Part shown: one piece after another, positions 20,761 to 51,291 of the stretch
Layout of the letters: each line of letters opens with the position of its first letter
Position numbering within the stretch: the first letter of the stretch is position 1
NCBI GenBank assembly: GCA_948567375.1
Contig: OX419755.1
Span: 26,304,517-26,368,516 of the forward strand
Length of the DNA: 64,000 nt
Origin: Lunularia cruciata
Lineage: Eukaryota; Streptophyta; Marchantiopsida; Lunulariales; Lunulariaceae
Direction of reading: 5' to 3'
Made by a program: the position numbers and the translations under genes
The notes under the pieces: model-generated
The model's database searches: none
Told to the model about the DNA's origin: nothing
The model's input: the letters and a program-made list of their open reading frames with translations, nothing else

Positions 20761-20769
20761 AGTAGAACT

Positions 20770-24330: not shown

Positions 24331-24382
24331 GTAGAGAGACCTTCACTTTGAGGACAAAGTGAAAACTTAGTCAGGGGATAAA

Positions 24383-25780: not shown

Positions 25781-26294
25781 TGTCACGTCATTTGTAGTGT
25801 CACATTTAGATTGCTTGGACACTAGAGTTCCAGTGATAGTAGTTAGAGTTATTTTAGCAGTTTCTCAAAGACTACTTTCCGACGGTCAGATTTCATGTTT
25901 GGGGTACTAACTTCACGGTGGGGCCCACCGTCACTTTGCACCGTTTGCACCATCGAGTGTGCCATCAGCAGGACCGTTAGGGTTCAGACCTAGCTCAAGT
26001 CCAGGGAGTATACTTTTGAAGTGCAACTCCAAAGAGCTCACTTCTCTGATGTTGAGCCTTCGAGTTCTTGGCTATGGTGGACAGAGGCCGGCGAGTGTCA
26101 CCTGGATTCTCTATGCTTGAGTGGGTGTGGCTTGACTATAATCAGTGCCTAGTTGTTGGCAGTTTATAGAGTGACAGATCAAGTACTGATCTGAGTTGAG
26201 TTGAGTTGAGAGTGGTAAACAATCTGATTTTGCTTCTATAGTGTATGATGTTGACAGTGATGTATGTTGTGTAGCGATGTATATACGTACGACA
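25781..26294 (+). repeat. Solo terminal repeat of family D in the copia element
   Basis: About 514 bp, starting TGTCACGTCATTTG and ending ACGTACGACA. ATCCT stands at 25776-25780 and again at 26294-26298, so the target duplication is 5 bp (or 4 bp if the final A belongs to the repeat). The copia sequence reads straight across (GGGATCCT then CTTACC). It holds block A followed by part of block B, the same order as the right end of the full family D copy at 50744-51291. Confidence 0.9.
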
Positions 26295-33120: not shown

Positions 33121-33597
33121 AAAAAACCAAATGTGGAGTGAAAGTATAGAGATTAATGATCTTTTTGTCTAGATCTTCTACTTAAGCAACATGAATCATG
33201 AAATATTCACTATAGAGCAGTTCAAAATTGTGCAAAATATTTCAATCACCGCACTGTTTGTTCTAGTTTGCTTAAATTTATAGAGCCTTAGTTTATGCTT
33301 GTCATTTACAAGTCATAAGTTCATATGCTAGTGATTCTAATGAAATCATAAGATATAAGGAAAATATATAATATTCCATATACCTCTTTGCCAATAGTCT
33401 ATAACTACTCCTAGCAAACATAACTCGTTGGGTAAACCAAAATTTTTTTTATATTAGACAAGTGTTGGTGTGTTATCATGTATAGAAGGTTTTGTGAGTT
33501 AAAACTCTGTCTAGGAATGTGCAAACTTATCAAGGTTTAATGTTTATCTCAGTCACTTCAATAAATTTGCAACGGATATATTTATCTATGTGATAGT

Positions 33598-34046
33598 TGT
33601 CACGCCATTTGTAGTTCCGCATCTAGATGCTCGGACACTAAAGTTCCAATGATGGTAGTTAGAGTTATTCTAGCAGTTTCCCAGGGACTACTTTCCGACG
33701 GTTGGATTTCGTGTTTGGGGTACTGACTTCACGGTGGGGCCCACCGTCACTTTGCACCGTTTGCACCGTCGAGTGTGCCGTCAGCGGGACCGTTAGGGTT
33801 TCAGGGTTAGCTCGAGTCCAGGGGGTATAGTTTCGAAGTGAGCTCCAGAGAGCTCACTTCTCTGATGTTGAGCCTTCGAGTTCCTGGCTATGGTGGACAG
33901 AGGCCGGCGAGCGTCACCTGGATTCTCTATGCTTGAGTGGGTGTGGCTTGACTGTAATCAATGCCTAGTTGTTGGCAGTTTATAGAGTGACAGATCAAGT
34001 ACTGATCTGAGTTGAGTTGAGTTGAAAGTGTTAAGCAATCTGATTA
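33598..34046 (+). repeat. Left terminal block A of family D copy 1
   Basis: It matches 50744-51184 and the first 440 bp of the solo repeat at 25781, from TGTCACG to CAATCTGATTA. Unlike the right end, no block B follows here; CATCAGAGAAG comes next. I see no clear tRNA-type primer-binding site after it. Confidence 0.85.
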
Positions 34047-34048
34047 CA

Positions 34049-35334: not shown

Positions 35335-36680
35335 TTGCGGTTGCAGTTGGTGGTTCGAGTTTGCTGTTGCAGTTACGTGGTCACGACGGAGTTCTTTGGA
35401 GATTCCAGAGGAGTTAGCCCTGTAGTACGCAGTGGGTTTACTCGGAGTGGTGCTCGGTATCAGCCTGTATCTCGAGTCCCAGTGAAGGAGGAGATTGACT
35501 CTGAGTTGGAGTTCGACACAGGAGCTAATTCAGTTGAGAGTGCACTTGGTGTGTCCGCACCGTTGTTGTGGGACATGGACGAGATTTATGGGGCCTCCAA
35601 AGGCCCTAGGCGTTACTCTGGTACAGTGGGTACCATTGAGTTGGATGACTTCATCCAGGAGTTTGATAGTTTGTGTGATCTGCAGCAGATGCGGAACCCG
35701 ACTTTGTTCACACCCTTCATGGCATGGAAGGGGTTGTTTCAGCACTTGGAGGGTCCACCGATGGATGACTACCATGATTTCAGGAGAGCTCATTTGGAGG
35801 AGATTGAGTTATGGAGACAGTATTGGTCTCCACACTATGTCTCCATCACTTTAGGCTCGGTGGCCAAGAGTAGATCGGCTGTACCTACGAGTTCTAGCTC
35901 GAGTAGTGTAGGTGGAGCTAGTGGAGGTGCACTAGCTGGAGATAGTGCTACTACGAGAGGAGGTACCGCTGTAGGAGGTGGTGTGGTACCGGGGTTTAAC
36001 CCCATGGTTGAGTTCTTCCTATGTTTGAGGCAGAACTACCAGGGAGTGCGGACTGACAAGCTGAGGAGCTTGCAGGAGTTCCAGCGGAAGGCTGGAGAGA
36101 GCCTACGCGAGGCATATACTTGCATGAGGCGGCTGATCAGTTTCACTCAGGGAGTTACTGAGGCCCAGGCAGTCCAATTTTGGTATGGGATACTGGACAG
36201 GGAGTTGCGACGTAGAGTTTGTGATGCTACGTTGTTGCAGGCTACTTTGCCCACTTTGGCAGTAGTCTTTGGTTTGGCTGAGCATATTGAGCTCAACATG
36301 GTGGAGGAGAGAGTGGTGACAGCTGGATTTGGTCGAGAGACCTCATCCACAGTTGTGACTTCTTCTAGAGTTCAACAGAGTGCACCACGTCCAGTTGGTT
36401 TTTGAGGATAGGGTGGACAGCCCAGATCCTATGGAGCGAGTGGAGGGCCTAGTGGAGTTAGACCCTTATCCTTATTTTCGGGTCAGCATCAGCCAGTGAG
36501 TGGTGGTGTTGCTTGTTGGACTTGTGGTGGACCTCACCATAGGAGAGAGTGTACTTAGGGCAGCTGACCTGATACCTCTGGTGCATCACAGCCAGCACAG
36601 AGGTAGTGTGAGCATTGCCACAGATTTGGTCACACTAGTGACCGGTGTTTTGACCTACACCCAGAGTTACGGAGTGGTAG
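35335..36680 (+). pseudogene. gag of family D copy 1 with zinc knuckles
   Basis: An open stretch of about 356 residues. An acidic N-terminal part is followed by FLCLRQNYQGVRTDKL and LREAYTCMRRLI (about 36020-36135), typical of retrotransposon gag, after a Ser/Gly-rich linker (about 35880-35985). Downstream come two zinc-knuckle-like stretches: CWTCGGPHHRREC (about 36517-36555) and CEHCHRFGHTSDRC (CX2CX4HX4C, about 36609-36650). Expected role is particle shell and RNA binding. Broken. The start is unsure. Confidence 0.8.
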
Positions 36681-36687
36681 GGCTGCT

Positions 36688-37540
36688 ATGGCAGGTAGTA
36701 GAGGAGCTCCAGTTCATGGAGGACAAGGTGGTAGAGGTGGTGGTAGAGGATCTACACCTAGTAGGGGTGCAGTACCTGCCCTTACTTCTGACACAGCTAT
36801 GGCTACTCGGATTGAGCAGTTGGAGCAGAGATTGGCTAGTATGGCTATTGCTCAGAGGAGATCAGATTCGGGTGCTGAGGCTTCCACCTCATATGCTAGT
36901 GATAGAGATGCTTTGGACTTCATGTGCGGAGCAGCACAGGTGGATGCATCTGCAGTAGTGACTAGGAGTGCAGTACGTGCTCTAGAGCCTAGAAGAGCAT
37001 CAGTGGAGTTGGACCCACAGAGAGGAGAGGTTGGGAGACAGGTCAGACTTCCCCAATCTTTCACGCTATCTGAGGCATTGCAGACGACATCCATGGTTCC
37101 TAGACGTCCCAATGCAGGTGTGGTAGGTGGTGATGGAGTACCTGATGGAGTACCTGCTAGTCAGCCACCTGCTACTACACAGACTGAGTCTAGCATGATG
37201 TTGGGGGCGGCTCAGCTGATTATGCGGCATCCTTTATTTTCAGCCAGTGACATGTTTACATTGGGAGTTGACCCAGCCCCATGGCTGCCACGTTGTGTGA
37301 GAGTAGGGATGGTGCAGTTCCTACTACTAGAGCAGAGGTGGTTGGTAGTGGAGCTGACTTGGTTGAGGAGCATGGGATCCGTTCAGCGACCAGTGGTTTA
37401 TGGCAGGCAGCAGCGGCTAGACTGGAGGAGTTGCCAGCTAGACCGGCCTTTGAGAGAGCGCGGTTTATACCTGGTGTTGTCCTATTGGATAACCAGAGGG
37501 GGATCTTTCATTTAGTGGGACCTTCAGGGAAGGTCTATAC
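36688..37540 (+). pseudogene. Gly-rich and linker region between gag and protease, family D copy 1
   Basis: It starts with a Gly/Arg-rich stretch (GGQGGRGGGRG) followed by a coiled-coil-like ATRIEQLEQRLASMAIAQRR (about 36798-36857). Similar sequence stands in copy 2 near 6720-6960, so it is a regular part of the family. Function unknown; it could be the end of gag or a spacer. Confidence 0.6.
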
Positions 37541-37840
37541 ACCACAGAGAGTCTTGTTAGACTCTGGTGCGCAGCCCCTTATGTTGGGGAAGGCTGCAGT
37601 TGTCGGTCTGGAGTTACGGAAGACCAATGTGGAGAGGTGTCCATTTCAAATCCAGACATCTCTTGGTGGTGGTTCGACACAGTACATCACACGTGGAGAG
37701 CTTGTTGTCCAGGTTCAGCCTGGTCATCCGACTGATAGCTTGGTGGTGAGAGCTCAGGCTATTGCGACGATAGCTGAGTCATATGATGTGCTAGTTGGGG
37801 GAGCAGTGTTATACCCTATGGGTTTCAGCATTGACTATTG
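37540..37840 (+). pseudogene. Aspartic protease of family D copy 1
   Basis: The catalytic motif VLLDSGAQPLML lies at about 37554-37590. The second characteristic loop is SYDVLVGGAVLYPMG (about 37780-37825). Retropepsins cut the polyprotein into its parts. It lies directly before the methyltransferase, in the same reading frame as it. Confidence 0.8.
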
Positions 37841-38264
37841 GGAGGAGACAGCCTCTTATAGACCTGGTTGGCAGTCTGGTGAGGGACGGGTATGTCGCCT
37901 ACCAGTACGCTTCAGTAGTGGCAGTCTTGGCTCACTACAGTCCGAGACCATGGCAACATCAGTTTTAGCTTTCAGCGGTGCAGTTACTTGGCCTGGTGAC
38001 TTGTTGGAGGGGAACGCCCATGCAGAGGATACTCCAGTACCAGAGGAGATCACTCGGCTATGGAGTACGAGTGGGATTGTTCCATCCACCTTGGATGTTC
38101 CATTGTGGAGTTCCGAGGAGGCATTGCAGCAGCATGCAGATCAGTTGGTGCAGCAGGCTTGGAGTGGAGCCTTCGTACCATCAGGGGATGAGTGTGAGGA
38201 TGAGCCTCCAGAGGCAATTGCTTTGACACCTCTGGATACCACACTCATTGCTTGGCAGTATCCA

Positions 38265-39141
38265 GTAGAGGGGATATGTCTATTGGAGTTGTTTGGTGGG
38301 ATCAGCACCGGACTAGCTGCGGTGTTACAGGCGGGTATCCGAGTACAGAGGTACTTGTATGTAGAGAGAGATGAGACTGCTAGGCGAGTCTCTCTACATC
38401 ATGTGGCACACTTGGCCTATCGGTATCCGGAGTTATTACCGATGTCAGCAATCAGAGGTTACCAGAAGGCCTTACCAGGAGACATTTCCTTACTGGGGGC
38501 GCATGACCTAGAAAGACATGGGCCTATTCACTTGGTGATTTTTGGATGGCCATGTCAGGGACATACACGTGCGGGCCGTGGTTTGGGTCTTCAAGATCCT
38601 CATTCTGGTGTGTTTTGGGAGATGTTACGGATACTACGACATCTCCAGGTTCATCAGTCTGTTTCTCCAACTTACCTTTTGGAGAATGTTCCATTGATGG
38701 GTGATTCTCGCACTAGAGTGGTGGCGAGTACACATCAGGTCCATTCTTTGATGGGACCTGCTGTATTGTTAGATGCAGCCAGAGTGGGATCACGGGCTCA
38801 TCGTCTTTGTCTTTGGTGGACAAACCTTTTACCCAAAGAGGTTCTACAACGTAGTTATGATGGGATTCAGTGACTTGACCACATCCTTGTTGATGATATC
38901 TTGGATGCTGGGCGTCAGTCTCAGACAGTGGTAGTGGCTGATAGGTCATCTATGGCAGTGGTGAACCTAGTTGGACAGCCTAGAGCTGCATTTCCCACAC
39001 TCATGAGTTTCCCAAGCTCTCATGCTTTTCGAGAGGGAGGACCTGGACTTGTTTGGGACTCACAGTTACAGCAGTTGGTGGAGCCCAATGCTGATGAGAG
39101 AGAGCAGGCGATGGGTTTTTGCACCGGTATTACCGCTGTTC
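38265..39141 (+). pseudogene. DNMT3-like cytosine-5 DNA methyltransferase domain, main part (family D copy 1)
   Basis: C5-methyltransferase motifs stand in canonical order: I, LELFGGISTGLAA (about 38283-38322), which binds S-adenosylmethionine; II, YVERDETARR (about 38360); IV, VIFGWPCQGHTRAG (about 38536-38577), with the catalytic Cys of PCQ; VI, LLENVPLMGD (about 38678); VIII, LLDAARVGSRAHRLCLWWTN (about 38767-38826); a short target-recognition region; IX, ending EQAMGF (about 39105-39120). The motif VIII pattern (DA..V...HR...W.N) is that of DNMT3-type enzymes rather than DNMT1, CMT or bacterial types. Protease precedes it and RT follows, so it belongs to the retroelement and is not a host gene. 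A family II element interrupts it at 39142 and motif X lies beyond. Confidence 0.9.
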
Positions 39142-39820
39142 TGTAACACCCATTTGTGCATGTGTGTGGTATTGTGATATTTAGCTTGGTATTACAAGTA
39201 CTTAAGAGATATTATTTATATAGAGATAAAGGATGGTTCTATATTAGTCATGGTTAGCTAAAGTTAGTCATAGCTAAGATAGATGGGACCTTACTTTAGA
39301 GGAAGTAGGAAAGATGAGCACCACTATTTTGGATTTTAGTGTGTTGACTTGGTATTATTCCTAGGTGTTTGGCTTTGGGGAAAGAGTTGAGAACTCTTGG
39401 GCCCGCAAGCCTTTTTGTTTTGGATTCTTCTTTAGTCCAAGGATAGCCCATGTGAAGGAATCCTTGCTTTAGTGGTTGGGTCAAGATAAGGGGAATATGC
39501 CCATGTGAATGGATATTCCTTTCTACTTTTTGACTTTACTTGACTTTTAGTCTAGTAACTTGAGTTACTACGGTAATTAGTAACTTTGGTACGTAACTAT
39601 TTCACAAGTATATAAACAAGGAGTGAGGAGGTACTCATCATCCTTTCATTTGCAACTATCTCTCTTTCATTGAGTTCTCTAGTGAGCAATGTCTTGAGTC
39701 TTGGAGTGTTAGCCTTGGAGGAGTATGATGGAGTTGGGGTTCCTTGCCTTCTTAGTCCATGGTGCGCTACCATAATAGCCATCAGAGGTTCATCCTGAGT
39801 GAGAGACAGGCCGGCTCACA
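39142..39820 (+). repeat. 5' LTR of young family II copy
   Basis: TGTAACACCC...CCGGCTCACA, 679 bp. TATATAAACAAGG (about 39609-39621) looks like the TATA region. The primer-binding site TGGTTCCGTTGCCGGGA follows from 39825 and resembles the TGGCGCCGTTGCCGGGG type used by many plant gypsy elements. Confidence 0.95.
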
Positions 39821-40032
39821 TTTTTGGTTCCGTTGCCGGGACCTCTCTAGAAGGCAAGATAATGTTCCGCGTCCAATTCTACATTAGGCAGAAGGAGGCT
39901 ATGAGAGCTCACTTGGAGAGAACATTAGGAGAGGAGAGGGCTGAACTTATGTTAGAGAACCAAGATCCATTTGTATACCCTGTAGTTCATTATGATGTCT
40001 TTGAGGTGATTTTGTACATCTTGTACACATGA
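39799..40032 (+). other. Leader frame of young family II copy
   Basis: A 77-residue frame over the LTR end and primer-binding site, with the same module as at 11320-11553 (FRVQFYIRQKEAMRAH, GEERAEL, QDPFVYPVVHYD). Preserved in both copies of the family. Unknown function; the related modules in family I stand at the N-terminal side of gag. Confidence 0.45.
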
Positions 40033-40680
40033 GAGGAATTGGAGAGATTGTGTGAGGTGGATTGCAGATTTTGGGGATTAAGGTGATTTTGGGCAAAATC
40101 TCAAGTTTGAGATCTGGACTTGAGATTTCTACACATGATAGCTTGGGTTATCTTTCAGTTAGCACACTTGAAATTATTGAGAGAGCTTCTATGCGCACTG
40201 GGCTAGAATTTTTGAAAGTTGATAGGGTAAAGTGCTCCCGCAACTGCATGCTCTCTGGAAAATTGTACAGAGTCTGCCATTTCTTCAATTTTCAGTGAAT
40301 TGTCCTGAAAATTTCCAAGAAAATTCAGTGCATTGTATCCTACCTGGTGCCACAAAAATTAGAGAGAGATCGTTTTTGCGCAGGGCGTGATGAGTTTTTG
40401 AAGTGAGGGGGGTGGTTTTCAGACCAAATCTGAAATATGGGTGCTGAATAGAAAGGTGTCTAGGCCAAATGGCTCAATGAAAAGATCTGAAATTTTGCAG
40501 GGAGGGACGCCCTGGAGTTGTGATCAAGTGTGCAAAATTTCAGAGGACTGTGACGTATTGGTTGGGAGATTTGAATGACATTGTGAGGAAGGGTCAATTC
40601 TGCAGAGTGGAGATCTCATGCATGAGAAGCTTGAGATCAACAAAAAGCATGTTTGAGTGTTTAGATTCATCTTGGGGAAC

Positions 40681-41154
40681 ATGGAGAGTCATCAAGAGTG
40701 GAAATTGAGATTATGCAAGGTTCCCCAAGGGTTTGAGGTGATTGTAGGGGTGGATTTGAGGAAAAGAGAGTTTACAATAGAATTTGAAGAGAGTGTTGAG
40801 AGGATCCAAAAACCTACACCACTTGGAGGAAAGAGTGAGTCTAAGTGCTTTCTATGTGGAGAGAAGGGACATAAGGCAAGTTCATGTCCATTGACCTTTG
40901 AGAGCAAGAGATTGAGGGAAAGGAGAGGCTTACTTGACTTGGGTTTGCATGTTGGACCTTCTTCACCAAGATTGGGAGGGAGAAGATCTAAGACCAAAGA
41001 GTTGTGTGAGGTTTGTGGAGTTGAAGGACTTCCAAAAGGACATGAGTGTAGTGGAGTAAAAGCACTTTTGGAAACTTTGGTGAAGGATCTTGGAGAGAGT
41101 CTTAGTACAGCTACAGAAATACTACCACCTTCATCAGCTAGTTCTCAAGATTAG
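40681..41154 (+). CDS. Upstream zinc-knuckle protein of young family II copy
   Basis: A 157-residue frame starting at the ATG that matches the start of the older copy (ESHQEWKLRLCKVPQGFEV). A CX2CX4HX4C knuckle (CFLCGEKGHKASSC, about residues 58-71) is followed by a basic stretch and a second Cys/His cluster CEVCGVEGLPKGHEC (about residues 107-121). It lies 235 bp before gag-pol and is separate from it. An extra frame before gag is not standard for gypsy elements. It may be a nucleic-acid-binding accessory protein, or a split-off part of gag. Function is inference only. Confidence 0.65.
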   Translation: MESHQEWKLRLCKVPQGFEVIVGVDLRKREFTIEFEESVERIQKPTPLGGKSESKCFLCGEKGHKASSCPLTFESKRLRERRGLLDLGLHVGPSSPRLGGRRSKTKELCEVCGVEGLPKGHECSGVKALLETLVKDLGESLSTATEILPPSSASSQD

Positions 41155-41389
41155 TGATGGAGATAATCTTTCAACTTATGGATAAACTATCCATGAGAGT
41201 TAGATTAATATGCACTCTAGGATTTGATGTTGCTATAGAAATCTTGGAGCAACCTGAACCTTTTGTGTTCCCTAGAGTGGATTATTCTCAGATGGTGTTA
41301 GTCATGTATATACTCTATTAGTAATAGAGTGAGAGAAAAGAAAAGAGAAAAAAAAAATTAAGAGAAAAGAAAGATAGTGAGGGGTTAAG

Positions 41390-44300
41390 ATGGGGAAACT
41401 TCCGGTTTTCTTTGGCAAGGATGGAGAAGATGTGGAGGCCTTTGTGAGAGACTTCAAGAGAGCTTGCATAGGAAACAATGAGAGGAGGAAGAATGAGTGG
41501 GCCTCATTATTACCAGATTTCTTTGAGGATGCAGCACTTACATGGTATGAGTCAGAATACCAAAAGAGAGAGAGGAGAGAGGGGGAAGAGGAGTCTTGGG
41601 AGACTTTGACTTCAGCACTCATTGAGAACTTTCTTCCTGATGAGAGTTATGAGAGATTGATGAGTGAGGTTACATTTCTCAAGCAAGGAGATGGAGAGAA
41701 AGTGAGAGTCTATGTGGAAAGAGTGGAAAAATTGGAGTCCAGATTTCGCATAGTGTTGAGGAAGGGTGGGGATGATGTGGAGACTACAATGATTGGCATA
41801 GGGGCCATGCTCACCAAGAATTTTGTGGGAGGATTGAGACCACAAATTAGAAGCAAGGTGAGATATGAGAAACCTTCTTCCAAGGTTGAAGCTATCAAGA
41901 TCGCAATTCGTATGGAGGAGAGTTTGGAAGGGGATGAGAGTGATTTGGTGGTGAAGGAGGTTGTGCATCCTCCTCAAGGCTACAAGTATGGTGGAACTTC
42001 TGATACTTTGGTGACAAGGGTTGCACCACAAGTAGTAGTTGCTCCAGTTCTTGCACCTCCACCAAAAGATCCACTCCAAACCATCACAGAACAACTTGCG
42101 GATCTCAAGATCAATGTGGTGCAATTATGGGAGAAGAGAGAGGTGGATCAGAATGTAGGGAGAGGGCCTAGGAGTTATGGAAACCATCCATATAGAGGAG
42201 GCCAACCAGCCAACAATTTCAATGATAGAAATTGTTTTGGTTGTGGGGGAAGAGGCCATATCCAAAGGAATTGCCCAAATTCCACTTACCATGGAGGAAG
42301 GGGTTATGAGGGAGCCAATAGAGGGAAAGAGGGAGGTAGTGAAACCCAAGTGGCTCCTAATCCCAACAAAGGTAAGGGGATAGCATCCATAGATGTGGTT
42401 GAGAGCAAGTATGAGAAGGGAGAGTGCTCAAACTCCAAGGGTCCTAATTTGGAGCTTTTGGCACAAGAGAAGAAGAGAGCTCGTTTTGCAGAGGATGTTC
42501 ACTCTTCTCAAGGATTTACTTCAAGCAAGGATACTCCTATGTCTACTAGGAGCACTCGCACCTCAACACCATCAACAACAAAGACTCCAAGGAAGAAGTT
42601 GGGGATGGAGGACTTCTTGATCTCCAAGCAACAATGGAACTACAATGTGTTGGAGGATGTTGGTAGTCACAAGGCTAACATCACAGTGGGCCAATTAATT
42701 GCTTTGAACCCTACCTTGAGAAAGGAGCTTAGAGGTGGTTTGAGTTCTACAAGGAGCAAGAAGAAGAAGAAGGCAAAAGTTCCAATATCAATGGGGGTGG
42801 TGGATGCCAAGCCAGCACCATGGGAAGCTTGTGAATATGCCTCCAAGATTGATGTGAGAGTGAATGGTCACAACATCAAGGATGCATTGGTTGATGGAGG
42901 ATCAGCAGTGAATGCCATGTCAGAAAGGTTGATGAAGAAGTTGGGTATGATACCCTCAAGAGCTTCAACATTTGTGGTGAGCATGGCAAACAAGCAACAA
43001 GTTCGACCAGTAGGAGTGATGGATAAGGTGGTAGTTTCAGTTATGGGAGTTCAAAATCTCATGACTTTCCAAGTCTTGAAGGATTCAAGCTATGACTTAC
43101 TTCTTGGGAGGCCATGGTTGAGAGCAGCACGCACAACTGATCGATGGCACAAAGGGTACTTAAGGATTGGGCCATCAAACCATAGAGTCACTGTTCCTGT
43201 GACTAACACCACCAACACTTCACATTCAGATACCCCATCTTCTGATTATTGGGAATCAGATTCTGAAGAAGGAGCTTCAGGTGTGGACACAAGCATGGAA
43301 GAGGAGACTTCCACGGAGGAGGATGAATCTGAATCTGATTCAGATGTGTATCCCTTGTGTGCTATGGATTTTGCACCTAAGCCAGAGGTTTTGAAGGACC
43401 CAGATAAATCACCATTGACACTTGAGGAGGTAGAGAGAAGGTTATCTACCCTCAAGTATGGCCCAAATGTTACCAAGGAGGAGAAGGTGAGATTTGAGGA
43501 GATTTTCCGCAAGTTCATCCATGTGTTTGCTTTTAGTTACAAGGATTTGAAGGAAGTCACCTTGGAGGAGCACAAGATAGAGGTGGAGTCACATGCAAGA
43601 CCAATCCGCCAAAAGCAACGTCGCATTAGCCCACCAATATCTTTGGTTGTGAAGGAGGAGATTGATAAGCTCAAGGAGGCTGGATTTATCTTTGAGGTGG
43701 AGAATTCAGAATGGGTGTCTCCAATTGTTATTGTGAAGAAAAAGAATGGCAAGCTTCGGGTTTGTGTGGATTACAAGAAGCTCAATGCTGTTACCAAGAA
43801 GGACTACTACCCATTGCCATTCATTGATGAGATCTTGGAGGAGGTTGCAGGTCATGAGAGGTACAGTTTTGGAGATGGTTATAGTGGATATAACCAAATC
43901 AAGATTGCACCAGAGCATCAACAACTCACCACATTCACCACACCTTGGGGAACTTACGCTTTCAAGGTCATGCCTTTTGGGCTTTGCAATGCTCCAGCCA
44001 CATTCCAACGGTTCATGAACAAGGTATTTGAACCTTTCATTGGGAAATTTGTGAGAGATTTCATTGATGACTTTTGTGTCTATGGGAGCAAGGAGGAGCA
44101 CTTTGAGCACCTAATCAAAGTCTTGCAACGCTTGGATGAGGCAAATGCATCACTCAACCCAGAGAAGTGCATTTTTGGATGTGAAGAAGGTCTACTTTTG
44201 GGGCACATCATCTCCAAGGATGGAATAGCAGTTGATCCTGAGAAGGTGAGGAAAATCTCAGACCTTCCATTCCCTTCAAGCTTGACAAAGTTACGCCAAT

Positions 44301-46216
44301 TCTTGGGAATGGTTGGGTACTATAGGAGGTTCATCTTCTCATTTTCCAACAAGGCTTATGCATTGACCATCTACATGAAGAAGGGTGTAGATTACATGGT
44401 GATTTTGGAAGACAAGGAGGCTCTCAAAGCTTTTGAGGAGCTCAAGCAATCCCTTGTTGTAGCTCCAATTCTTGCTAAACCTGATTGGAGTAAGCCTTTC
44501 ATCCTCTACACTGATGCTTCTAATGTAGCTATAGGATGCACTCTTAGTCAATTAGACCAAGATGGGCATGATCATCCAATAGCTTATGCTAGTAGGCAGA
44601 TGGTTTCAGCAGAGAAGAACTACTCTGTCACAGAGAGAGAAGGGTTGGCAGTGATCTTTGGTCTCAAGAAGTTTAGACACTACTTGATTGGAGGGAAGGC
44701 CACAATTGTCACGGATCACAAGGCTTTGAAGTACATCTTCAACAAGCCTAATGTTGAAGGGAGACTAGCAAGGTGGATGATTCTCTTGTCTGAGTATGAC
44801 TACACAATTGAGGATAGGCCAGGAAAGAAACATGCAAATGCTGATTTGTTATCTAGAGCCTATGATCATGATGGAGATGAGCCAGTAGATGATTCCTTCC
44901 CGGATGAGGAGCTCATGACAATCTCAGTCACTCAAGAGGTTCCAATGGAGTACAAGGAGATTGTGGATTTTGTGACAAGAGGTAACTATCCAGAAGGGAT
45001 GCATGCTAGGGAGAGGAAGGCCCTTGCAGCAAGATCTAGACCTTACACAATGGTGGATGATATTCTTTTTCACCAAGGAGCAGATGGTCTACTTCGAAGA
45101 GCAGTGGGTAAGGAAGAGTCCATCCTACTCATAAAGGAGTTTCATGAAGGCTTAGTATGTGGAGGACACTTTGCAGGAAAGGTGACTGCTTTCAAGATTC
45201 TAGATGCAGGTTACCATTGGAGAGGGATTTTCAAGGATTGTCTTGATTATTGCAAAACTTGTCATGTTTGTCAAGCTTTTGCTAGAAAGTCTACATCCAC
45301 TCCACCACTTAGATCAATTCCATTGCTAGGACCCTTTGAGAAGTGGGGAATTGATTTTGTAGGACCTCTCAATAGAACCCCAAGGAACAATCGGTACATT
45401 GTGGTAGTTACTGATTACCTTACCAAGTGGGTTGAGGCTAGACCATTGAGGGACAAGAATGAAGATGAAGTGGGTAGATTTCTTTATGAACGCATTATCA
45501 CTAGGTTTGGATGCCCTTTGGAGTTGGTTTCTGATAGAGGAGGAGAGTTTACAGGAAGCATTACTACAGCCATGCTACGACACTTCTCTATCACACATAG
45601 AGTAACTACATCCTATAAGCCAAATTCCAATGGCTTGGCAGAGAGAACCAATCAGACCTTGTGCATGATGTTGGCCAAAGATGCAGAAATGGAGGGGGCT
45701 AAACATCATTGGGACAAGAGGATTCATGCAGTTTTGTGGGAGTATAGGACAACCATGAAGACTTCCACTGGATATTCTCCATTCCAATTGGTGTATGGTA
45801 TTGAGTCTACCTTACCTATTCACTTTGATCTTCCTACCTTCCAAAGCATTCATAGGAGATTGAAGAAAGCACAAGGAAGTGATGCAGAGAAGTCAAGGAA
45901 GGATCAACTCATGGAGTTAGAAGAGGCAAGAGCAGTTGCTATGGTTCGAGTGGAGCAAGCCCAAAGGAAACAAAAGGAGAGCTATGACAAGAGGCAAGGC
46001 AAGAAGAAGGTGGAGCCTTTCAAAGAAGGTGATTGGGTAATGTTGTTTGATTCCATTCGATTCAAGAGAGTACAAAAGAAGTTTTTGCCTAAGTACTTTG
46101 GACCTTTCATAGTAGAGAAGGTGTGGGGAAATTACACTTATGATCTCAAGGAGTTGGGAGGAAGACACTTTGATAGGATTAACCATGATAAGTTAAAGAT
46201 GTACCATAGAAGGTAG
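41390..46216 (+). CDS. gag-pol polyprotein of young family II copy
   Basis: A single 1608-residue frame. Order by residue: capsid-like gag (about 1-250), zinc knuckle CFGCGGRGHIQRNC (about 282-295), a Ser/Thr-rich linker, protease with LVDGGSAVNAMS (about 500), an acidic linker, RT with KLRVCVDYKKLNAV (about 787-800), PFGLCNAPATFQRF (about 862-875) and FIDDFCVYG (about 890-898), RNase H with LYTDASNVAIG (about 1039-1049), HHCC zinc-binding region with CKTCHVCQ (about 1288-1295), DDE integrase with GIDFVGPL (about 1319), VSDRGGEFTG (about 1381) and NGLAERTNQ (about 1412). It has the length and order expected of Ty3/gypsy gag-pol. No chromodomain and no envelope. Confidence 0.95.
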   Translation: MGKLPVFFGKDGEDVEAFVRDFKRACIGNNERRKNEWASLLPDFFEDAALTWYESEYQKRERREGEEESWETLTSALIENFLPDESYERLMSEVTFLKQGDGEKVRVYVERVEKLESRFRIVLRKGGDDVETTMIGIGAMLTKNFVGGLRPQIRSKVRYEKPSSKVEAIKIAIRMEESLEGDESDLVVKEVVHPPQGYKYGGTSDTLVTRVAPQVVVAPVLAPPPKDPLQTITEQLADLKINVVQLWEKREVDQNVGRGPRSYGNHPYRGGQPANNFNDRNCFGCGGRGHIQRNCPNSTYHGGRGYEGANRGKEGGSETQVAPNPNKGKGIASIDVVESKYEKGECSNSKGPNLELLAQEKKRARFAEDVHSSQGFTSSKDTPMSTRSTRTSTPSTTKTPRKKLGMEDFLISKQQWNYNVLEDVGSHKANITVGQLIALNPTLRKELRGGLSSTRSKKKKKAKVPISMGVVDAKPAPWEACEYASKIDVRVNGHNIKDALVDGGSAVNAMSERLMKKLGMIPSRASTFVVSMANKQQVRPVGVMDKVVVSVMGVQNLMTFQVLKDSSYDLLLGRPWLRAARTTDRWHKGYLRIGPSNHRVTVPVTNTTNTSHSDTPSSDYWESDSEEGASGVDTSMEEETSTEEDESESDSDVYPLCAMDFAPKPEVLKDPDKSPLTLEEVERRLSTLKYGPNVTKEEKVRFEEIFRKFIHVFAFSYKDLKEVTLEEHKIEVESHARPIRQKQRRISPPISLVVKEEIDKLKEAGFIFEVENSEWVSPIVIVKKKNGKLRVCVDYKKLNAVTKKDYYPLPFIDEILEEVAGHERYSFGDGYSGYNQIKIAPEHQQLTTFTTPWGTYAFKVMPFGLCNAPATFQRFMNKVFEPFIGKFVRDFIDDFCVYGSKEEHFEHLIKVLQRLDEANASLNPEKCIFGCEEGLLLGHIISKDGIAVDPEKVRKISDLPFPSSLTKLRQFLGMVGYYRRFIFSFSNKAYALTIYMKKGVDYMVILEDKEALKAFEELKQSLVVAPILAKPDWSKPFILYTDASNVAIGCTLSQLDQDGHDHPIAYASRQMVSAEKNYSVTEREGLAVIFGLKKFRHYLIGGKATIVTDHKALKYIFNKPNVEGRLARWMILLSEYDYTIEDRPGKKHANADLLSRAYDHDGDEPVDDSFPDEELMTISVTQEVPMEYKEIVDFVTRGNYPEGMHARERKALAARSRPYTMVDDILFHQGADGLLRRAVGKEESILLIKEFHEGLVCGGHFAGKVTAFKILDAGYHWRGIFKDCLDYCKTCHVCQAFARKSTSTPPLRSIPLLGPFEKWGIDFVGPLNRTPRNNRYIVVVTDYLTKWVEARPLRDKNEDEVGRFLYERIITRFGCPLELVSDRGGEFTGSITTAMLRHFSITHRVTTSYKPNSNGLAERTNQTLCMMLAKDAEMEGAKHHWDKRIHAVLWEYRTTMKTSTGYSPFQLVYGIESTLPIHFDLPTFQSIHRRLKKAQGSDAEKSRKDQLMELEEARAVAMVRVEQAQRKQKESYDKRQGKKKVEPFKEGDWVMLFDSIRFKRVQKKFLPKYFGPFIVEKVWGNYTYDLKELGGRHFDRINHDKLKMYHRR

Positions 46217-46251
46217 AGAGACCTTCACTTTGAGGACAAAGTGAAAACTTA

Positions 46252-46264
46252 GTCCGGGGGTAAA
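46252..46264 (+). other. Polypurine tract of young family II copy
   Basis: The tract CCGGGGGTAAA stands directly before the 3' LTR, in the place where plus-strand DNA synthesis is primed in LTR elements. Confidence 0.7.
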
Positions 46265-46943
46265 TGTAACACCCATTTGTGCATGTGTGTGGTATTGTGA
46301 TATTTAGCTTGGTATTACAAGTACTTAAGAGATATTATTTATATAGAGATAAAGGATGGTTCTATATTAGTCATGGTTAGCTAAAGTTAGTCATAGCTAA
46401 GATAGATGGGACCTTACTTTAGAGGAAGTAGGAAAGATGAGCACCACTATTTTGGATTTTAGTGTGTTGACTTGGTATTATTCCTAGGTGTTTGGCTTTG
46501 GGGAAAGAGTTGAGAACTCTTGGGCCCGCAAGCCTTTTTGTTTTGGATTCTTCTTTAGTCCAAGGATAGCCCATGTGAAGGAATCCTTGCTTTAGTGGTT
46601 GGGTCAAGATAAGGGGAATATGCCCATGTGAATGGATATTCCTTTCTACTTTTTGACTTTACTTGACTTTTAGTCTAGTAACTTGAGTTACTACGGTAAT
46701 TAGTAACTTTGGTACGTAACTATTTCACAAGTATATAAACAAGGAGTGAGGAGGTACTCATCATCCTTTCATTTGCAACTATCTCTCTTTCATTGAGTTC
46801 TCTAGTGAGCAATGTCTTGAGTCTTGGAGTGTTAGCCTTGGAGGAGTATGATGGAGTTGGGGTTCCTTGCCTTCTTAGTCCATGGTGCGCTACCATAATA
46901 GCCATCAGAGGTTCATCCTGAGTGAGAGACAGGCCGGCTCACA
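46265..46943 (+). repeat. 3' LTR of young family II copy
   Basis: 679 bp, identical by eye to 39142-39820. Family D sequence resumes right after the GTTC duplication. Confidence 0.95.
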
Positions 46944-47060
46944 GTTCCAGCAGTGTCAGAGGCATCCAGGCGTCAGGTGTTAGGTCAGGCTATGGACCTG
47001 AACTGTTTGACCTGGATTGCAAGCCTTGGTTTGGCAGAGCAGCGTAGGATGCGCTTGATA
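46944..47060 (+). pseudogene. Methyltransferase motif X region, family D copy 1
   Basis: It carries SEASRRQVLGQAMDLNCLTW (about 46953-47012), the motif X pattern (R..LG.A..) that closes the cofactor site in C5-methyltransferases. It continues the domain that stops at 39141. The uninterrupted order is seen in copy 2 at 30760-30870. Confidence 0.8.
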
Positions 47061-47590
47061 GGCATCACCACCCGGACACTTGTGAGCCCTGTGCCTATCG
47101 AGACGATTCAGGCACATGCTGGGGGCGATGGACCGAGTGGACATGGTATTCTTGGGACACATCCAATAGCTACTAGGGAGAGTGGTCTACTTGGAGTCCA
47201 TCCAGGTGAGCGTGGGCTACTTGGATTACACCCTTGGTCCACATGGGATGCAACCAGAGGACGTATGGAGCTTGCAGCCAGAGTGGAGGGAGTTTTTCAC
47301 ACAGAGGTTGGGACCTCTAGTGGTCGGGAGCATGACACTATTGCTCCCAAGGGCCCAGTGTAACAGCCAGTCAGTACGTCTTCCACTCCTACTACAGTTA
47401 CAGAGGATACTTGGGAGCCAGATCTTGGACCCAAGCTTACTGGAGAGGAAAGACGGAGGGTTTGGAGGTTCTTGAGGAGTCACACGAATTGTTTTGCCTT
47501 TAGTATGAAGGATTTGGGTGCTCTGAAGGGACCTGGTATACGGATTGAGCTGACTAGTGACACACCAGTTTTCCGACGTCCTTATTGATA
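47061..47590 (+). pseudogene. Linker between methyltransferase and RT, family D copy 1
   Basis: A Gly/His-rich stretch (GLLGVHPGERGLLGLHP, about 47176-47240) leads to the segment that precedes gypsy RT (FAFSMKDLGAL, near 47495). The same linker is seen in copy 2 near 30960-31440. No known domain. Confidence 0.55.
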
Positions 47591-48840
47591 TAGTGATATG
47601 GAGAGGACATTGATTCAGAGCCGGAGTAGTGACCTTTTTGAGGCTGGTTTGGTGGAGATTTCACATGGAGAGTATGCATCAGCGACAGTGATGCCAGCCA
47701 AGAAGGATATGCATGGCAACTATACAGATAGGCGGATGTGTGGAGATTACCATCCTATCAACCGACAGACCAGGGCTGATCGGTATGCCATGCCTACACC
47801 GGAGGAGATTTTTGATGCAATTGGGCATGCAAAGGTCTTCAATACTTTGGATCTTCGAGCGGGATATCATCAGTTGCCGATCAGGGAGGAAGATAAGTCC
47901 AAGACAACATTTTGGGCTATTGATCCTCAAGGATGTGTTATATCAGTGGAGGTTCTTACCATTTGGGTTGAAGAATGCTCCCGCTGAGTTCCAGAGGGTC
48001 ATGGATAGGATCCTAGCTGGATTGGATTTTGCTCGGTGCTATATTGATGACATTTTGGTTTATAGCACTACTGTGGAGGAGCATGAGAGACAGTTGTTGG
48101 AGGTGTTTGAGAGGTTGAGATCTCATGGACTCAAATTACATCTTGGGAAGTGTAGGTTCTTCCATGAGCAGGTTGAGTATTTGGGTCACACTATCTACCC
48201 CGGAGGACTTGGTGTTCAGCAGACCAAGGTGGAGGCTATTGCACGTATTCCTCGGCCTACGGATGTGAGCAGAGTGCGAGCATTCCTTGGGTTGGCAAAC
48301 TTCTATCACCGCTATGTTAGAGGATTTAGTATCATTGCCAAGGCCTTGACGAAGCTGACCAAGCTTACATAGGAGTGGTGTTGGGGAGATGAGCAGGAGA
48401 GAGCTTTTGTAGAGCTCAAGGAGAGGTTGACATCTGCTCCTATTTTGAGGAGACCAATCAAAGGATGACCATTTCAGGTTCACATTGATTGGAGTATGTT
48501 GGGGCTTGGAGCAGTGCTCACCCAGCATGATGATGAGGAGAAGGAGTTTGTGGTGGCCTATGCTAGTCGCTCCAACAATTCAGCGGAGGCGAAGTATAGT
48601 TCATATGAGGGAGAGTGCTTGGCAGCAGTTTGGGCAGTAGCACATTTCCGATGTTACCTATTTGGTAACCCCTTCACTCTCATCACTGATCATCAGCCGC
48701 TGAAGTGGTTGATGGAGTCCGACAAGCTTTCAGGGAAGCTTGCACGATGGGCTCTGATTTTACAGGAGTATGATTTCACGGTTGTTCACAGACCTGGAGT
48801 GGTGAACCGTGATGCAAATAGGTTGAGTAGAAACCCATGT
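47591..48840 (+). pseudogene. RT and RNase H of family D copy 1
   Basis: RT: RRMCGDYHPINRQT (about 47730-47770), FNTLDLRAGYHQLPI (about 47838-47880), a PFGLKNAPAEFQRV motif (about 47960) and the catalytic CYIDDILVYS (about 48039-48066). RNase H: GLGAVLTQHDDEEKEFVVAY (about 48505-48560) and LITDHQPLKWLM (about 48683). These are standard Ty3/gypsy domains. Broken. Confidence 0.9.
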
Positions 48841-49189
48841 CCCAGCCATCAGGATCAGACCGGAGAGATGGTATGGTGAGACAGATGAGGAGATGGTGCC
48901 AGGTTGGCATGCATTGGCCTTTCTATGTATATTTGCAGAGACTTTGGTGGTATCTCTCTCCGCGCATACAGGAGGAGTTATTGAGGTCACAGATCCAGAG
49001 AGTGAAGATATTGGTACAGTTCAGCGAGACATTCATGATGATGTCTTAGTGATGGACTATCTTTGCATTGGTGTTGTGGGTGGCACAGTTGGGGCCAAGG
49101 AGAGAGACCGTGTTCTTCAGCGATCCAGACGGTTCAGATTGGAGGGTAGACATCTTTTGCGTGTATGGGAGGATGGTAGAGTGCGAGTA

Positions 49190-50310
49190 GTACCACTTCC
49201 ATCACAGAGACCACAGTTGGTCCGTCATGCTCATGAGGAGCTAGGACATTTTGGAGTAAAGCGTACATATAGCTTACTCCAGAGTCATTATTGGTGGCAC
49301 GGTATGCAGACCAAGGTACAGCAATTTGTTGCCAAATGTGTGGTTTGTGACCGAGTTAGAGCATCATTCAATGCTCCTACGCCACAATTACACCCATTAC
49401 CTATCATGGGATTGGGTTACCATTGGAGTTTGGACTTCGCCGGACCTTTCCCGCTGACTGTGAGACATCATCGGTATGTTTTGGTGATGGTGGAGCACTT
49501 CTCCAAGTGGATTGAGTTGGTGGCACTTCCTGACAAGTCTAGTGAAGGGACAGCTTACTCGTTCCTGGATCAAGTTCTTAGTCATTTTGGTGCACCAGCT
49601 GAGGTTTTGATTGATTAGGGTACAGAGTTCTTGGGAGAGTTTCAGGTCTTGTGTGACAAGGCTTTGATTGATCATCTTACTACATCCCGAGATCACCCTG
49701 AGGCAGATGGCTTAGCAGAGAGAGTGGTTCAGACGGTGAAGAGAGGATTGCGAAAGTATAGTTTGCAGAGAGGCCACTTGGGAGATTGGGATCTCTAGTT
49801 ACCTTGGTTGGCCATGGGCTATCGGTTCAGCCGGCAAGCCTCTTAGCATCCTTCTCTCCATACTTTCTACTCTATGGATGAGATCCAGATTTACCTGTAG
49901 CCATTCATCGAGATGCTACTGTAGTTTTGGACTTGGATGACCCCGATGTATGGATGAGCGCATGTTCTCAGCGGGCAGAGATTTTTCGGAGAGTGATGCC
50001 AATGGCTTTTGAGAACTTGGCGATTGCTCAGCATAGAGACTTTACGCTATGCTACCATTCGGGGAGGAGGTTATAGACCCTCGATCCGTCGATTTCATCC
50101 AGGTGACTATGTATATCTACAGCAGACAGCACCGACAACACTTGATGTTTCTACAGGCCGCACTATCTTGAGAGTGCGCGAGGTTTTGCCATCTGGAGTC
50201 CTTGTGTTAGAAGGACGTGATGGTGTTGTTTGGAAGGATCATGTGCGCAATTGTGCGCCATGCCACCTTCCAAACATTGATGGTACTATGGACCCAAGCT
50301 TGGCACTTGT
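49190..50310 (+). pseudogene. Integrase of family D copy 1
   Basis: HHCC zinc-binding region: HAHEELGHFGVKRT (about 49225-49266) and KCVVCDR (about 49336). DDE core: SLDFAGPFPL (about 49429) and VMVEHFSKWIELVALP (about 49486), with later D- and E-side motifs near 49610 and 49715. The C-terminal tail has TILRVREVLPSGVLVLEGRD (about 50164-50220) and NCAPCHLPNIDGT, which leads into the PHD finger. The DDE integrase fits the 4-5 bp target duplications. Broken. Confidence 0.85.
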
Positions 50311-50326
50311 ACGTGCAGGCTTGAGG

Positions 50327-50461
50327 TGTATGTTATGTGGCTCTTCTGGTGGAGCTGCTACTATGTTAGTGTGTGATAGCTGTTCGAGAGGATGGCATAT
50401 GGCATGTATGACTCCTCCCCTCACGGGGGTTCCTCAAGGATAGTGGTTATGTCCTAGATGT
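50327..50461 (+). pseudogene. PHD finger at the C-terminus of the family D polyprotein
   Basis: The C4HC3 pattern is clear: CMLC, then VCDSC, then GWHMAC, then a WLCPRC-type end, with the usual spacing and the typical MLVCDSC...WH core. PHD fingers bind histone H3 tails, often depending on methylation of Lys4. It sits where chromoviruses carry a chromodomain, so a role in choosing insertion sites is a reasonable inference. Part of a decayed element. Confidence 0.9.
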
Positions 50462-50623
50462 ACTTGACCTATAGCTAGTTCATTCTTTATATGGTATAGA
50501 TTGCAGACAGGCGACTAACGATGGGGCTCCATAGCACCCGGCCTCCTGATCTTTGCCCATTAGAGGGTATACCATATACTTAGAGTAGATGGCTATCTGG
50601 AGTTAGAGGGACCTAACCGCCAG

Positions 50624-50635
50624 CTAGGGGGGCGA
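50624..50635 (+). other. Polypurine tract of family D copy 1
   Basis: The G-run TAGGGGGGCGA stands after the coding region and directly before block B1, not before block A. Confidence 0.65.
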
Positions 50636-50743
50636 TTGTGGCACTTTAGAGTCTATGTATGACTTATGTGTGAGTTGTGCTTTTATAGTGTATGATGTTG
50701 ACAACGATGTATGTTGTGTAGAGATGTATATACACACGACAGC
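50635..50743 (+). repeat. Block B1 of the family D right terminus
   Basis: From ATTGTGGCACTTTAGAG to CACACGACAGC, about 107 bp. It is the same sequence as block B2 at 51185-51291 with few differences. The join to block A forms the perfect palindrome GACAGCTGTC (50738-50747). Confidence 0.9.
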
Positions 50744-51184
50744 TGTCACGCCATTTGTAGTTCCGCATCTAGATGCTCGGACACTGAAGTTCCAGTGATG
50801 GTAGTTAGAGTTATTCTAGCAGTTTCCCAGGGACTACTTTCCGACGGTTGGATTTTGTGTTCGGGGTACTGACTTCACGGTGAGGCCCACCGTCACTTTG
50901 CACCGTTTGCACCGTCGAGTGTGCCGTCAGCGTGACCGTTAGGGTTTTAGGGCTAGCTCAAGTCCAGGGGGTATAGTTTCGAAGTGAGCTCCAGAGAGCT
51001 CACTTCTCTGATGTTGAGCCTTCGAGTTCCTGGCTATGGTGGACAGTGGCCGGCGAGCGTCACTTGGATTCTCTATGCTTGAGTGGGTGTGGCTTGACTG
51101 TAACCAGTTGTTGGCAGTTTATAGAGTGACAGATCAAGTATTGATCTGAGTTGAGTTGAGGTGAAAGTGTTAAGCAATCTGATT
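50744..51184 (+). repeat. Right block A of family D copy 1
   Basis: It matches the left block A (33598-34046) from TGTCACGCC to CAATCTGATT, with a few percent differences by eye. Confidence 0.9.
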
Positions 51185-51291
51185 ATTGTGGCACTTTAGA
51201 GTCTATGTATGACTTATGTGTGAGTTGTGCTTTTATAGTGTATGATGTTGACAACAATGTATGTTGTGTAGAGATGTATATACGCACGACA
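51185..51291 (+). repeat. Block B2, right end of family D copy 1
   Basis: A second copy of block B. It ends CGCACGACA at the target duplication. The solo repeat at 25781-26294 also ends with a shortened block B, so this is a genuine end of the element. Confidence 0.9.

What the first reader, a model, noticed from the sequence alone, without database searches (positions are those of the whole stretch)
38265..47060. DNMT3-like DNA methyltransferase carried inside the pol region of a Ty3/gypsy element
Seen in the sequence: C5-methyltransferase motifs I, II, IV (with PCQ), VI, VIII, IX and X stand in order between an aspartic protease and an RT, in the same frame as the protease. Motif VIII is of the DNMT3 type. 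A second, older copy (29905-30970) has the same arrangement at the same place. Known: I recall that cytosine methyltransferases have been reported in retrotransposons of dinoflagellates and of the charophyte Klebsormidium. I am not aware of a land-plant case with this protease-methyltransferase-RT order. Inference: the element may have marked its own copies or host chromatin, perhaps to survive silencing or to target integration.
Basis: partly seen in the sequence, partly recalled or inferred. Interest (0 to 1): 0.93.

Follow-up and report, generated by a model that had tools for sequence, protein, structure and literature searches.

The report
Plant jumping gene carrying DNA methyltransferase
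A family of jumping genes, found in very many copies in what looks like a liverwort or moss genome, carries its own DNMT3-type DNA-methylating enzyme and a probable histone-reading finger, so it encodes a writer and perhaps a reader of the chromatin marks with which hosts silence such elements.

Summary
Window 38226-39141 plus 46944-47060, split by a recent nested Gypsy, encodes a DNMT3-type cytosine methyltransferase (MTase) fused to an aspartic protease inside a Ty3/gypsy element (33598-51291). It is no chance capture. In the window's 566-Mb genome an MTase 32-mer occurs 1,723 times. Over 20 copies, pN/pS of the MTase is 0.32, like RT (0.33) and unlike the adjacent tail (1.15). Protease-MTase-RT order recurs in Marchantia, and parts of it in Calypogeia, Sphagnum, Riccia and Closterium. 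The closest published case is KnitGypsy-Dnmt3 of the alga Klebsormidium; my paper searches found no land-plant report. Features seen in none of the passages read: a PHD finger at the integrase C-terminus; the MTase on the Gag side of an in-frame UAG-CARYYA (readthrough-type) stop; 4-bp target duplications around A-internal-B-A-B repeats, suggesting a circular DNA intermediate. The MTase lineage stands apart from the host's own DNMT3-like and DRM genes, so the capture looks old. Most likely the MTase is packaged with Gag and methylates the element's cDNA before integration; that step is inferred. CG and CHG deamination scars suggest that integrated copies become methylated, as host silencing alone would also do.

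The parts
33594..33597 (.). left copy of 4-bp target-site duplication TAGT (right copy 51292-51295)
   Evidence: same 4-bp rule in 14 of 14 genome copies with both ends compared
33598..34046 (+). 5' A repeat (starts TGTCACG); lacks B
   Evidence: 95% identical to the 3' A repeat
35335..37280 (+). gag and CCHC region, broken by frame changes in this copy
   Evidence: ORFs; no Pfam match for the first ORF; assignment by alignment to genome copies with one 1428-aa frame and to Marchantia P0042
37281..38225 (+). aspartic protease (LLDSGAQP from 37554) and linker
   Evidence: Asp_protease_2 matched only below cut-off in relative P0002
38226..39141 (+). MTase motifs I-IX; TGA stop at 38871-38873
   Evidence: PF00145, DNMT3A/3B, fold of homologue P0001
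39142..46943 (+). nested young Gypsy element, 1608-aa ORF, inserted in the MTase; duplication GTTC at 39138-39141 and 46944-46947
46944..47060 (+). MTase C-terminal part with motif X (GQAMDLN from 46983)
47361..47363 (+). conserved in-frame stop between ORF1 and ORF2 (TAA here; TAG-CAG-CCA in genome copies)
47364..48879 (+). RT and RNase H (broken)
   Evidence: RVT_1 below cut-off on one fragment; RT tree
48893..50233 (+). integrase: H2C2 zinc finger, rve core, GPY/F-like part (the last by eye)
   Evidence: PF17921 7e-19, PF00665 2e-7 slightly below cut-off; coordinates
50318..50464 (+). PHD finger at integrase C-terminus, one stop inside in this copy
   Evidence: PF00628 E 1.1e-12 with X at the stop; coordinates
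50635..50741 (+). internal B repeat, preceded by a polypurine run
   Evidence: 98% identical to 51185-51291
50744..51185 (+). 3' A repeat
51185..51291 (+). terminal B repeat (ends ACGACA)
5642..7951 (+). older copy, gag-protease half
29530..31978 (+). older copy, MTase-RT half (many stops)
25781..26294 (+). solo A-B unit with duplication TCCT

Best explanation
It is a large, recently active family of Ty3/gypsy elements whose first ORF is Gag-CCHC-protease-DNMT3-type methyltransferase and whose second ORF, behind an in-frame UAG of the leaky CARYYA type, is RT-RNaseH-integrase-PHD. Shown: domain order, DNMT3 class, conservation under purifying selection, genome-wide carriage, the conserved stop, A-internal-B-A-B repeats with 4-bp target duplications, and a lineage separate from the host's own enzymes. 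Inferred: the MTase is made at Gag level, travels in the particle, and methylates cytosines of the element's double-stranded cDNA before it integrates (probability about 0.45); the PHD finger, which resembles fingers of histone-tail readers, steers integrase to chromatin (about 0.5); and the DNA passes through a circle opened by integrase at the CA-GC-TG site inside the repeat (about 0.6).
For: Class; AlphaFold of homologue P0001 (pLDDT 88.4, pTM 0.88); the 50 listed Foldseek matches are all DNMT3-family entries (3A, 3B, one 3C), best 6f57_D E 1.2e-18, TM 0.83 by target. Order in other genomes: Marchantia P0042 (gag-CCHC-PR-MTase) and P0046 (PR-MTase-RT-RNaseH; a gene model, so splicing over a stop is possible), Closterium P0030 and P0189, unnamed P0139 and P0184. 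Selection: pN/pS MTase 0.32 (bootstrap over copies 0.26-0.45), protease alone 0.26, CCHC-protease 0.42, RT-RNaseH 0.33, tail 1.15, 18-20 copies per region; MTase 0.32 between the two window copies. Motif patterns I, IV, VI, VIII in 20 of 20 and X in 19 of 20 copies, any frame. Carriage: 32-mers with up to 2 mismatches: MTase 1,723, PR 2,253, RT 4,785, reversed controls 0; 11 of 12 sampled RT sites without a listed exact MTase 32-mer have MTase sequence. Stop: TAG-CAG-CCA in 20 of 20 copies, one shifted by 1 base; 747 exact genome matches. PHD: 12 of 13 homologues whose integrase match is complete, 17 of 20 genome copies. Repeats and duplications.
Against: No activity, substrate or transcript was measured for this family. 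In the 2018 study the isolated KnitGypsy-Dnmt3 domain gave no methylation in yeast (authors call it inconclusive; PMC5890265 section 10). Scars in integrated copies (C-to-T 4.1% at CG, 2.1% at CHG, 0.4% at CHH) are what host MET1- and CMT-type silencing would give and show no mark that only the element's enzyme could leave. CpG is less depleted in this element (0.43-0.48) than in the MTase-free nested Gypsy (0.15). Among 32 homologues with most of the MTase profile covered, all five strict motif patterns are present in 12; the rest are truncated, mutated or do not fit the patterns. If the UAG is not read through, RT would need reinitiation. The circle rests on structure alone.
Confidence: 0.6

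Rival explanations
1. The MTase acts on chromatin at or near the integration site (guided by integrase-PHD), not on the cDNA, so that new copies land in or create a silenced but safe niche.
For: PHD finger on the integrase resembling PHDs of chromatin proteins such as CHD4, KMT2D, DPF3 and KDM5A. A readthrough product would hold MTase and integrase-PHD in one polyprotein (inference).
Against: Most MTase would be made without integrase if the UAG is only leaky (inference). No insertion-site preference was tested.
Confidence: 0.2
2. Self-restraint: the enzyme seeds methylation on the element's own copies so that the host silences them, limiting damage and prolonging family survival.
For: Copies show CG and CHG deamination; de Mendoza 2018 raises a related idea in its discussion (PMC5890265 section 11).
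Against: Very many copies and A-A divergence of only 0.4-3.3% in 15 copies show that restraint is weak. CpG depletion is milder than in an MTase-free family.
Confidence: 0.13
3. The domain is kept for a non-DNA-methylating task (RNA methylation, or nucleic-acid binding as part of the Gag polyprotein).
For: Position on the Gag side of the stop.
Against: Catalytic motifs kept; DNMT3-type fold and motif VIII.
Confidence: 0.1
4. Land-plant elements captured a DNMT3 independently of the Klebsormidium elements.
For: The 2018 paper describes an independent acquisition in the K. nitens lineage. I could not obtain the KnitGypsy MTase sequence or host DNMT3s of other streptophytes.
Against: The 12 element MTases put in the tree, one of them from Closterium, split from the host's own DNMT3-like gene, two DRM-like genes and human DNMT3A (100/99, unrooted). 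A 17-column insert between motifs II and IV, absent in DNMT3A, is seen in 9 of the 10 element sequences (P0153 has a deletion there). MTase and RT identities co-vary over these 10 (r 0.89, 0 of 5000 permutations; one pair, P0169/P0143, was linked only by equal contig length). K. nitens RTs fall among these RTs, and the repeat plan matches.
Confidence: 0.15
5. Chance capture: a passenger domain without function.
For: Both window copies are broken.
Against: Purifying selection equal to RT, genome-wide carriage, and homologues in several bryophytes and Closterium.
Confidence: 0.02

Closest known systems
KnitGypsy-Dnmt3 of Klebsormidium nitens (de Mendoza et al. 2018, PMC5890265)
   Same: Gypsy domain set, Dnmt3-type MTase without rearrangement in the element's coding region, DIRS-like A-coding-B-A-B repeats, purifying selection on the domain, several copies.
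   Different: Here bryophytes; very many copies; PHD finger at integrase end; MTase before a conserved UAG-CARYYA stop; 4-bp duplications. None of these was found in the parts of the paper read (term search for PHD: 0 hits; figures and supplements not seen).
SymbioDIRS-Dnmt3 of Symbiodinium (same paper)
   Same: DNMT3-type MTase in a retroelement with split A/B repeats.
   Different: Tyrosine recombinase there; here an rve integrase with zinc finger and target-site duplications.
Chromoviruses (Gypsy with C-terminal integrase chromodomain; recalled, and seen in abstracts)
   Same: Histone-reading type of domain at the integrase C-terminus.
   Different: PHD finger instead of chromodomain; MTase added; split repeats.
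Host DNMT3 and DRM
   Same: Same enzyme class.
   Different: No partner domain found by Pfam; own insert between motifs II and IV; 29% identical to the host's own DNMT3-like gene over 148 positions; motif order not rearranged as in DRM.

Membership tests
KnitGypsy-Dnmt3-like elements | Gypsy-type protease, RT-RNaseH, rve integrase | tested here: met
   (protease by motif and weak Pfam matches)
KnitGypsy-Dnmt3-like elements | Dnmt3-type MTase, motif order not rearranged, inside the element's coding region | tested here: met
KnitGypsy-Dnmt3-like elements | A-coding-B-A-B repeats | tested here: met
   window; 3' B-A-B in 17 of 20 copies, complete 5' A as well in 15
KnitGypsy-Dnmt3-like elements | MTase sequence groups with that of K. 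nitens elements | not tested
   no K. nitens MTase among the listed hits; only K. nitens RT proteins P0176, P0194
KnitGypsy-Dnmt3-like elements | RT in the same clade as K. nitens elements | tested here: inconclusive
   K. nitens RTs fall within the sampled set, but there is only one outgroup and these two proteins show no MTase
KnitGypsy-Dnmt3-like elements | purifying selection on the MTase | tested here: met
   pN/pS 0.32 over 20 copies; published Ka/Ks below 0.2
SymbioDIRS-Dnmt3 | tyrosine recombinase | tested here: not met
   rve and H2C2 integrase; 4-bp duplications
Chromovirus | chromodomain at integrase C-terminus | tested here: not met
   Pfam finds PHD and no chromodomain in homologues P0143, P0144, P0173
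DRM | rearranged motif order | tested here: not met
   I to X in order; host locus L019 does show the rearranged order
Animal DNMT3 | ADD and PWWP domains | tested here: not met
   Pfam scans at E 0.01 show neither
Active DNA cytosine MTase | 5mC activity | not testable with these tools
   motifs intact only

The most novel reading that the evidence does not exclude
An ancient streptophyte retroelement lineage that carries both a chromatin writer (DNMT3-type MTase, made with Gag ahead of a leaky UAG) and a chromatin reader (PHD on integrase), and that replicates through a circular DNA opened by its own integrase inside the repeat: a Gypsy machine running a DIRS-like cycle, which pre-methylates its cDNA and has loaded a bryophyte genome with more than a thousand DNMT3-type gene copies.
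Probability: 0.3. Interest if true: 0.88.

Novelty: new variant of a known kind. Interest (0 to 1): 0.76.

Why it matters
DNA methylation is a main weapon of plants against transposons; here the transposon owns the writer, keeps it under selection about as strict as that on its reverse transcriptase, and has spread it to more than a thousand sites of one genome. It turns a curiosity known from one alga and dinoflagellates into a feature of bryophyte genomes, including the model Marchantia polymorpha, where it can be tested. It also complicates DNMT3 gene counts in plants. The repeat plan offers a test of whether an rve integrase can use a circular substrate in vivo.

Tried and rejected
Viral contig scans: no member of the family, only two loci with 27%-identical MTases. 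Protein search 2 probably drew most words from gag-protease and missed MTase-only relatives; one search lists only 120 of 803 hits, so vascular plants are not excluded. Independent capture from this host's DNMT3 was considered and disfavoured. A tRNA primer site after the 5' A repeat was looked for by eye: no TGG start; a short hairpin is there instead. RT outnumbering MTase pattern hits (4,785 to 1,723) first suggested MTase-free copies. Of the first 15 exact RT sites listed, 3 have a listed exact MTase 32-mer at the expected distance; the other 12 were fetched (601 bases each): 11 hold MTase sequence at 68-93% identity, L070 only a 49-residue piece, L071 none. Those 12 may still hold 32-mers with 1-2 mismatches, which the listing does not show. 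Results against my reading: no unique methylation scar, CpG less depleted than in an MTase-free Gypsy, integrase pN/pS 0.74, yeast test of the relative negative, strict motif set complete in only 12 of 32 homologues. The 20 copies were picked from the 81 scored hits, favouring long open frames, so counts of intact ORFs are biased upward and were not used as frequencies.

Not in print refers only to searches of an open-licence library (listings and abstract starts). PMC5890265: abstract, sections 9, 10, 11, 15, part 1 of 7 of the text, and term passages seen. PMC12344493, PMC6338049, PMC6317226, PMC9516144, PMC5784723, PMC10952607, PMC6453930, PMC5382211: term passages only. No supplement and no figure was seen. 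GPY/F, chromovirus and MET1/CMT context preferences are recalled except where passages above state them.
Full report
WHAT IS THERE. The ORF at 37281-38873 of the window reads from an aspartic protease (LLDSGAQP) straight into a C5-cytosine methyltransferase. Pfam's DNA_methylase is matched above its cut-off. Among solved structures DNMT3A is best (E 1e-7), DNMT3B next (5e-5), HaeIII 0.015, DRM2 0.04. With a family profile the figures are 4e-15 for DNMT3A, 2.5e-6 for HaeIII, 3e-5 for DRM2, and 5.5e-7 for 4onj, listed only as 'DNA methyltransferase' and which I recall as a tobacco DRM. A model of the homologue P0001 (pLDDT 88.4, pTM 0.88) has DNMT3-family entries (3A, 3B, one 3C) as all of its 50 listed Foldseek matches (best E 1.2e-18, TM 0.83 by target length). 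Motif order is canonical, not DRM-like. The reading frame is broken by a TGA at 38871 and by a nested Gypsy at 39142-46943 whose LTRs are 99.85% identical; motif X follows at 46983.

THE ELEMENT. It runs from 33598 (TG) to 51291 (CA) between 4-bp duplications TAGT. Its repeats are A (33598-34046), B (50635-50741), A (50744-51185), B (51185-51291). A solo A-B unit at 25781-26294 has its own duplication TCCT. The integrase ends in a PHD finger (50318-50464; PF00628 E 1.1e-12 with X at its one stop). The older copy is 5642-7951 plus 29530-31978.

THE FAMILY IN ITS OWN GENOME. The window lies in a 566-Mb assembly. The protease-MTase query gave 16,328 first-look candidates, of which 81 were scored; these, the window's own copy included, are 95-100% identical over at least 529 of 530 residues, and 9 list an open frame of 1428 aa, 7 of them with no stop inside the match. 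A 32-mer of the MTase with up to 2 mismatches occurs 1,723 times, one of the protease 2,253 times and one of the RT 4,785 times, reversed controls 0. Of the first 15 exact RT sites listed, 3 have a listed exact MTase 32-mer; of the other 12, 11 have MTase sequence in the 601 bases fetched, at 68-93% identity (L070 only 49 residues; L071 none). In 20 copies read (chosen from the 81), ORF1 is gag-CCHC-protease-MTase (1428 aa stop to stop; uninterrupted in 5 of the 20) and ORF2 is RT-RNaseH-integrase-PHD (1037 aa stop to stop, uninterrupted in L035), in the same frame, separated by TAG followed by CAGCCA in 20 of 20, one shifted by a single-base indel; 747 exact genome matches to that junction with its flank (the comparison with other codons at that place did not complete). 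UAG-CARYYA is the type I readthrough context of plant viruses (PMC5382211, passages); note that in L028, L032 and L033 the bases after CAGCC vary slightly further downstream, and L032 reads CAGCCT. The PHD zinc pattern is found in 17 of 20. MTase motif patterns I, IV, VI and VIII are found in 20 of 20 and X in 19 (any frame).

SELECTION AND AGE. pN/pS: MTase 0.32 (0.26-0.45), protease alone 0.26, CCHC-protease 0.42, protease-MTase linker 0.29, RT-RNaseH 0.33, gag 0.41, GPY-PHD 0.44, integrase 0.74, the tail after the MTase 1.15 (0.64-3.05) (18-20 copies per region). Between the two window copies the MTase value is 0.32. The two A repeats of a copy differ by 0.4-3.3%, median 1.6% (15 copies). 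So the enzyme was kept by selection up to a recent burst.

OTHER GENOMES. Three protein searches return Marchantia polymorpha, Calypogeia fissa, Sphagnum, Riccia sorocarpa and Closterium, and many unnamed environmental proteins; one search lists 120 of 803 hits. Locally made profiles (protease by motif only) over the 225 proteins held show protease-MTase in 28, MTase-RT in 7, protease-MTase-RT in 4, MTase-RT-integrase in 3, RT-integrase-PHD in 11, MTase-integrase-PHD in 1 and RT-MTase in 1; of the other 170, 57 show MTase alone, 51 protease alone, 31 RT alone, 11 RT-integrase and 20 none of these. Of 13 proteins whose integrase match reaches its end, 12 have the PHD (P0034 included); P0205 of Closterium does not. 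Whether the UAG between the ORFs exists in the other species could not be read from protein records; some single-ORF forms are gene models. The window's MTase sits in a clade with Calypogeia, Marchantia, Sphagnum and environmental rows (100/95) and its RT with Calypogeia, Marchantia and environmental rows (99/98); K. nitens RTs fall among the sampled RTs. Twelve element MTases split from the host's DNMT3-like gene (L015, apparent intron), two host DRM-like loci (L019 with rearranged order; L023, only its motif I-IV part matched) and human DNMT3A (100/99, unrooted). MTase and RT identities co-vary over 10 sequences (r 0.89). This favours one old capture; a wider set of host DNMT3s is needed.

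REPEATS AND REPLICATION. 17 of 20 copies end in B-A-B, 15 with a complete 5' A as well; two more (L026, L027) are A-internal-B; L025 shows only the 5' A in its stretch. Four-bp duplications flank the A...B unit in 14 of 14 copies with both ends compared (L031 and L032 have no complete 5' end), and by eye in L042, L026, L027, the window element and the solo unit. The internal B starts just after a polypurine run; internal B and A are parted by two bases between CA and TG; A and B abut at the 3' end. If reverse transcription makes repeats of the form B-A, the integrated form is a two-repeat circle opened at CA-GC-TG. This is my inference; it would explain why an element with an rve integrase has the repeat plan of DIRS elements, which the 2018 paper reports for K. 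nitens without explanation in the parts read. Recombination among repeats could also make the A-internal-B and solo forms.

FUNCTION. With the MTase on the Gag side of a leaky stop, it should be made in larger amounts than RT and be packaged (inference). The simplest task there is methylation of cDNA, as proposed in 2018 for SymbioDIRS. Against over-reading: differences between the two A repeats are 94 transitions of 105; C-to-T is 4.1% at CG, 2.1% at CHG, 0.4% at CHH (15 copies), as expected from host CG and CHG methylation; CpG depletion is milder than in the MTase-free nested Gypsy. Substrate, timing and benefit remain unproven.

VERDICT. Real, old, selected, abundant; a new variant (PHD finger, Gag-side MTase, land plants, very high copy number) of a known kind (KnitGypsy-Dnmt3).

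Noticed in passing
P0156 (environmental protein): A Gypsy-like RT-RNaseH protein with an MTase region of the same lineage placed after, not before, the RT (found by my profile and tree, not by Pfam at E 0.01); a different architecture on a long branch.
   Followed up: partly
window 39142-46943 and 18320-25073: Nested Gypsy family with a 1608-aa ORF and, in the first copy, almost identical LTRs, yet CpG observed/expected of 0.15 (0.07 in the other copy), lower than in the older element it sits in (0.43-0.48).
   Followed up: partly
window 34039-34053; same in L028, L035, L037, L039, L041: Perfect short hairpin TCTGAT-TAC-ATCAGA across the A/internal boundary where a tRNA primer site would be expected; no TGG start seen. 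Possible self-priming.
   Followed up: no
L025-L044, integrase region 7801-8800: Integrase pN/pS 0.74 (0.60-0.97), higher than RT and MTase (0.33, 0.32) in the same set of copies; unexplained.
   Followed up: no
G000:C7:31989816-31990154 (L015); C6:13140243 (L019); C1:48270087 (L023): Host loci: one DNMT3-like gene with canonical motif order and an apparent intron, one DRM-like gene with rearranged order, and a second DRM-like locus of which only the motif I-IV part matched.
   Followed up: partly
P0034, Marchantia Mp_7g09570: Annotated Marchantia gene model that looks like a deletion product of this family (part of the MTase joined to integrase-PHD); such models can mislead PHD and DNMT gene counts.
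   Followed up: partly
L066, G000:C1:723841-724441: A second MTase subfamily in the same genome, 68-75% identical to the main one.
   Followed up: no
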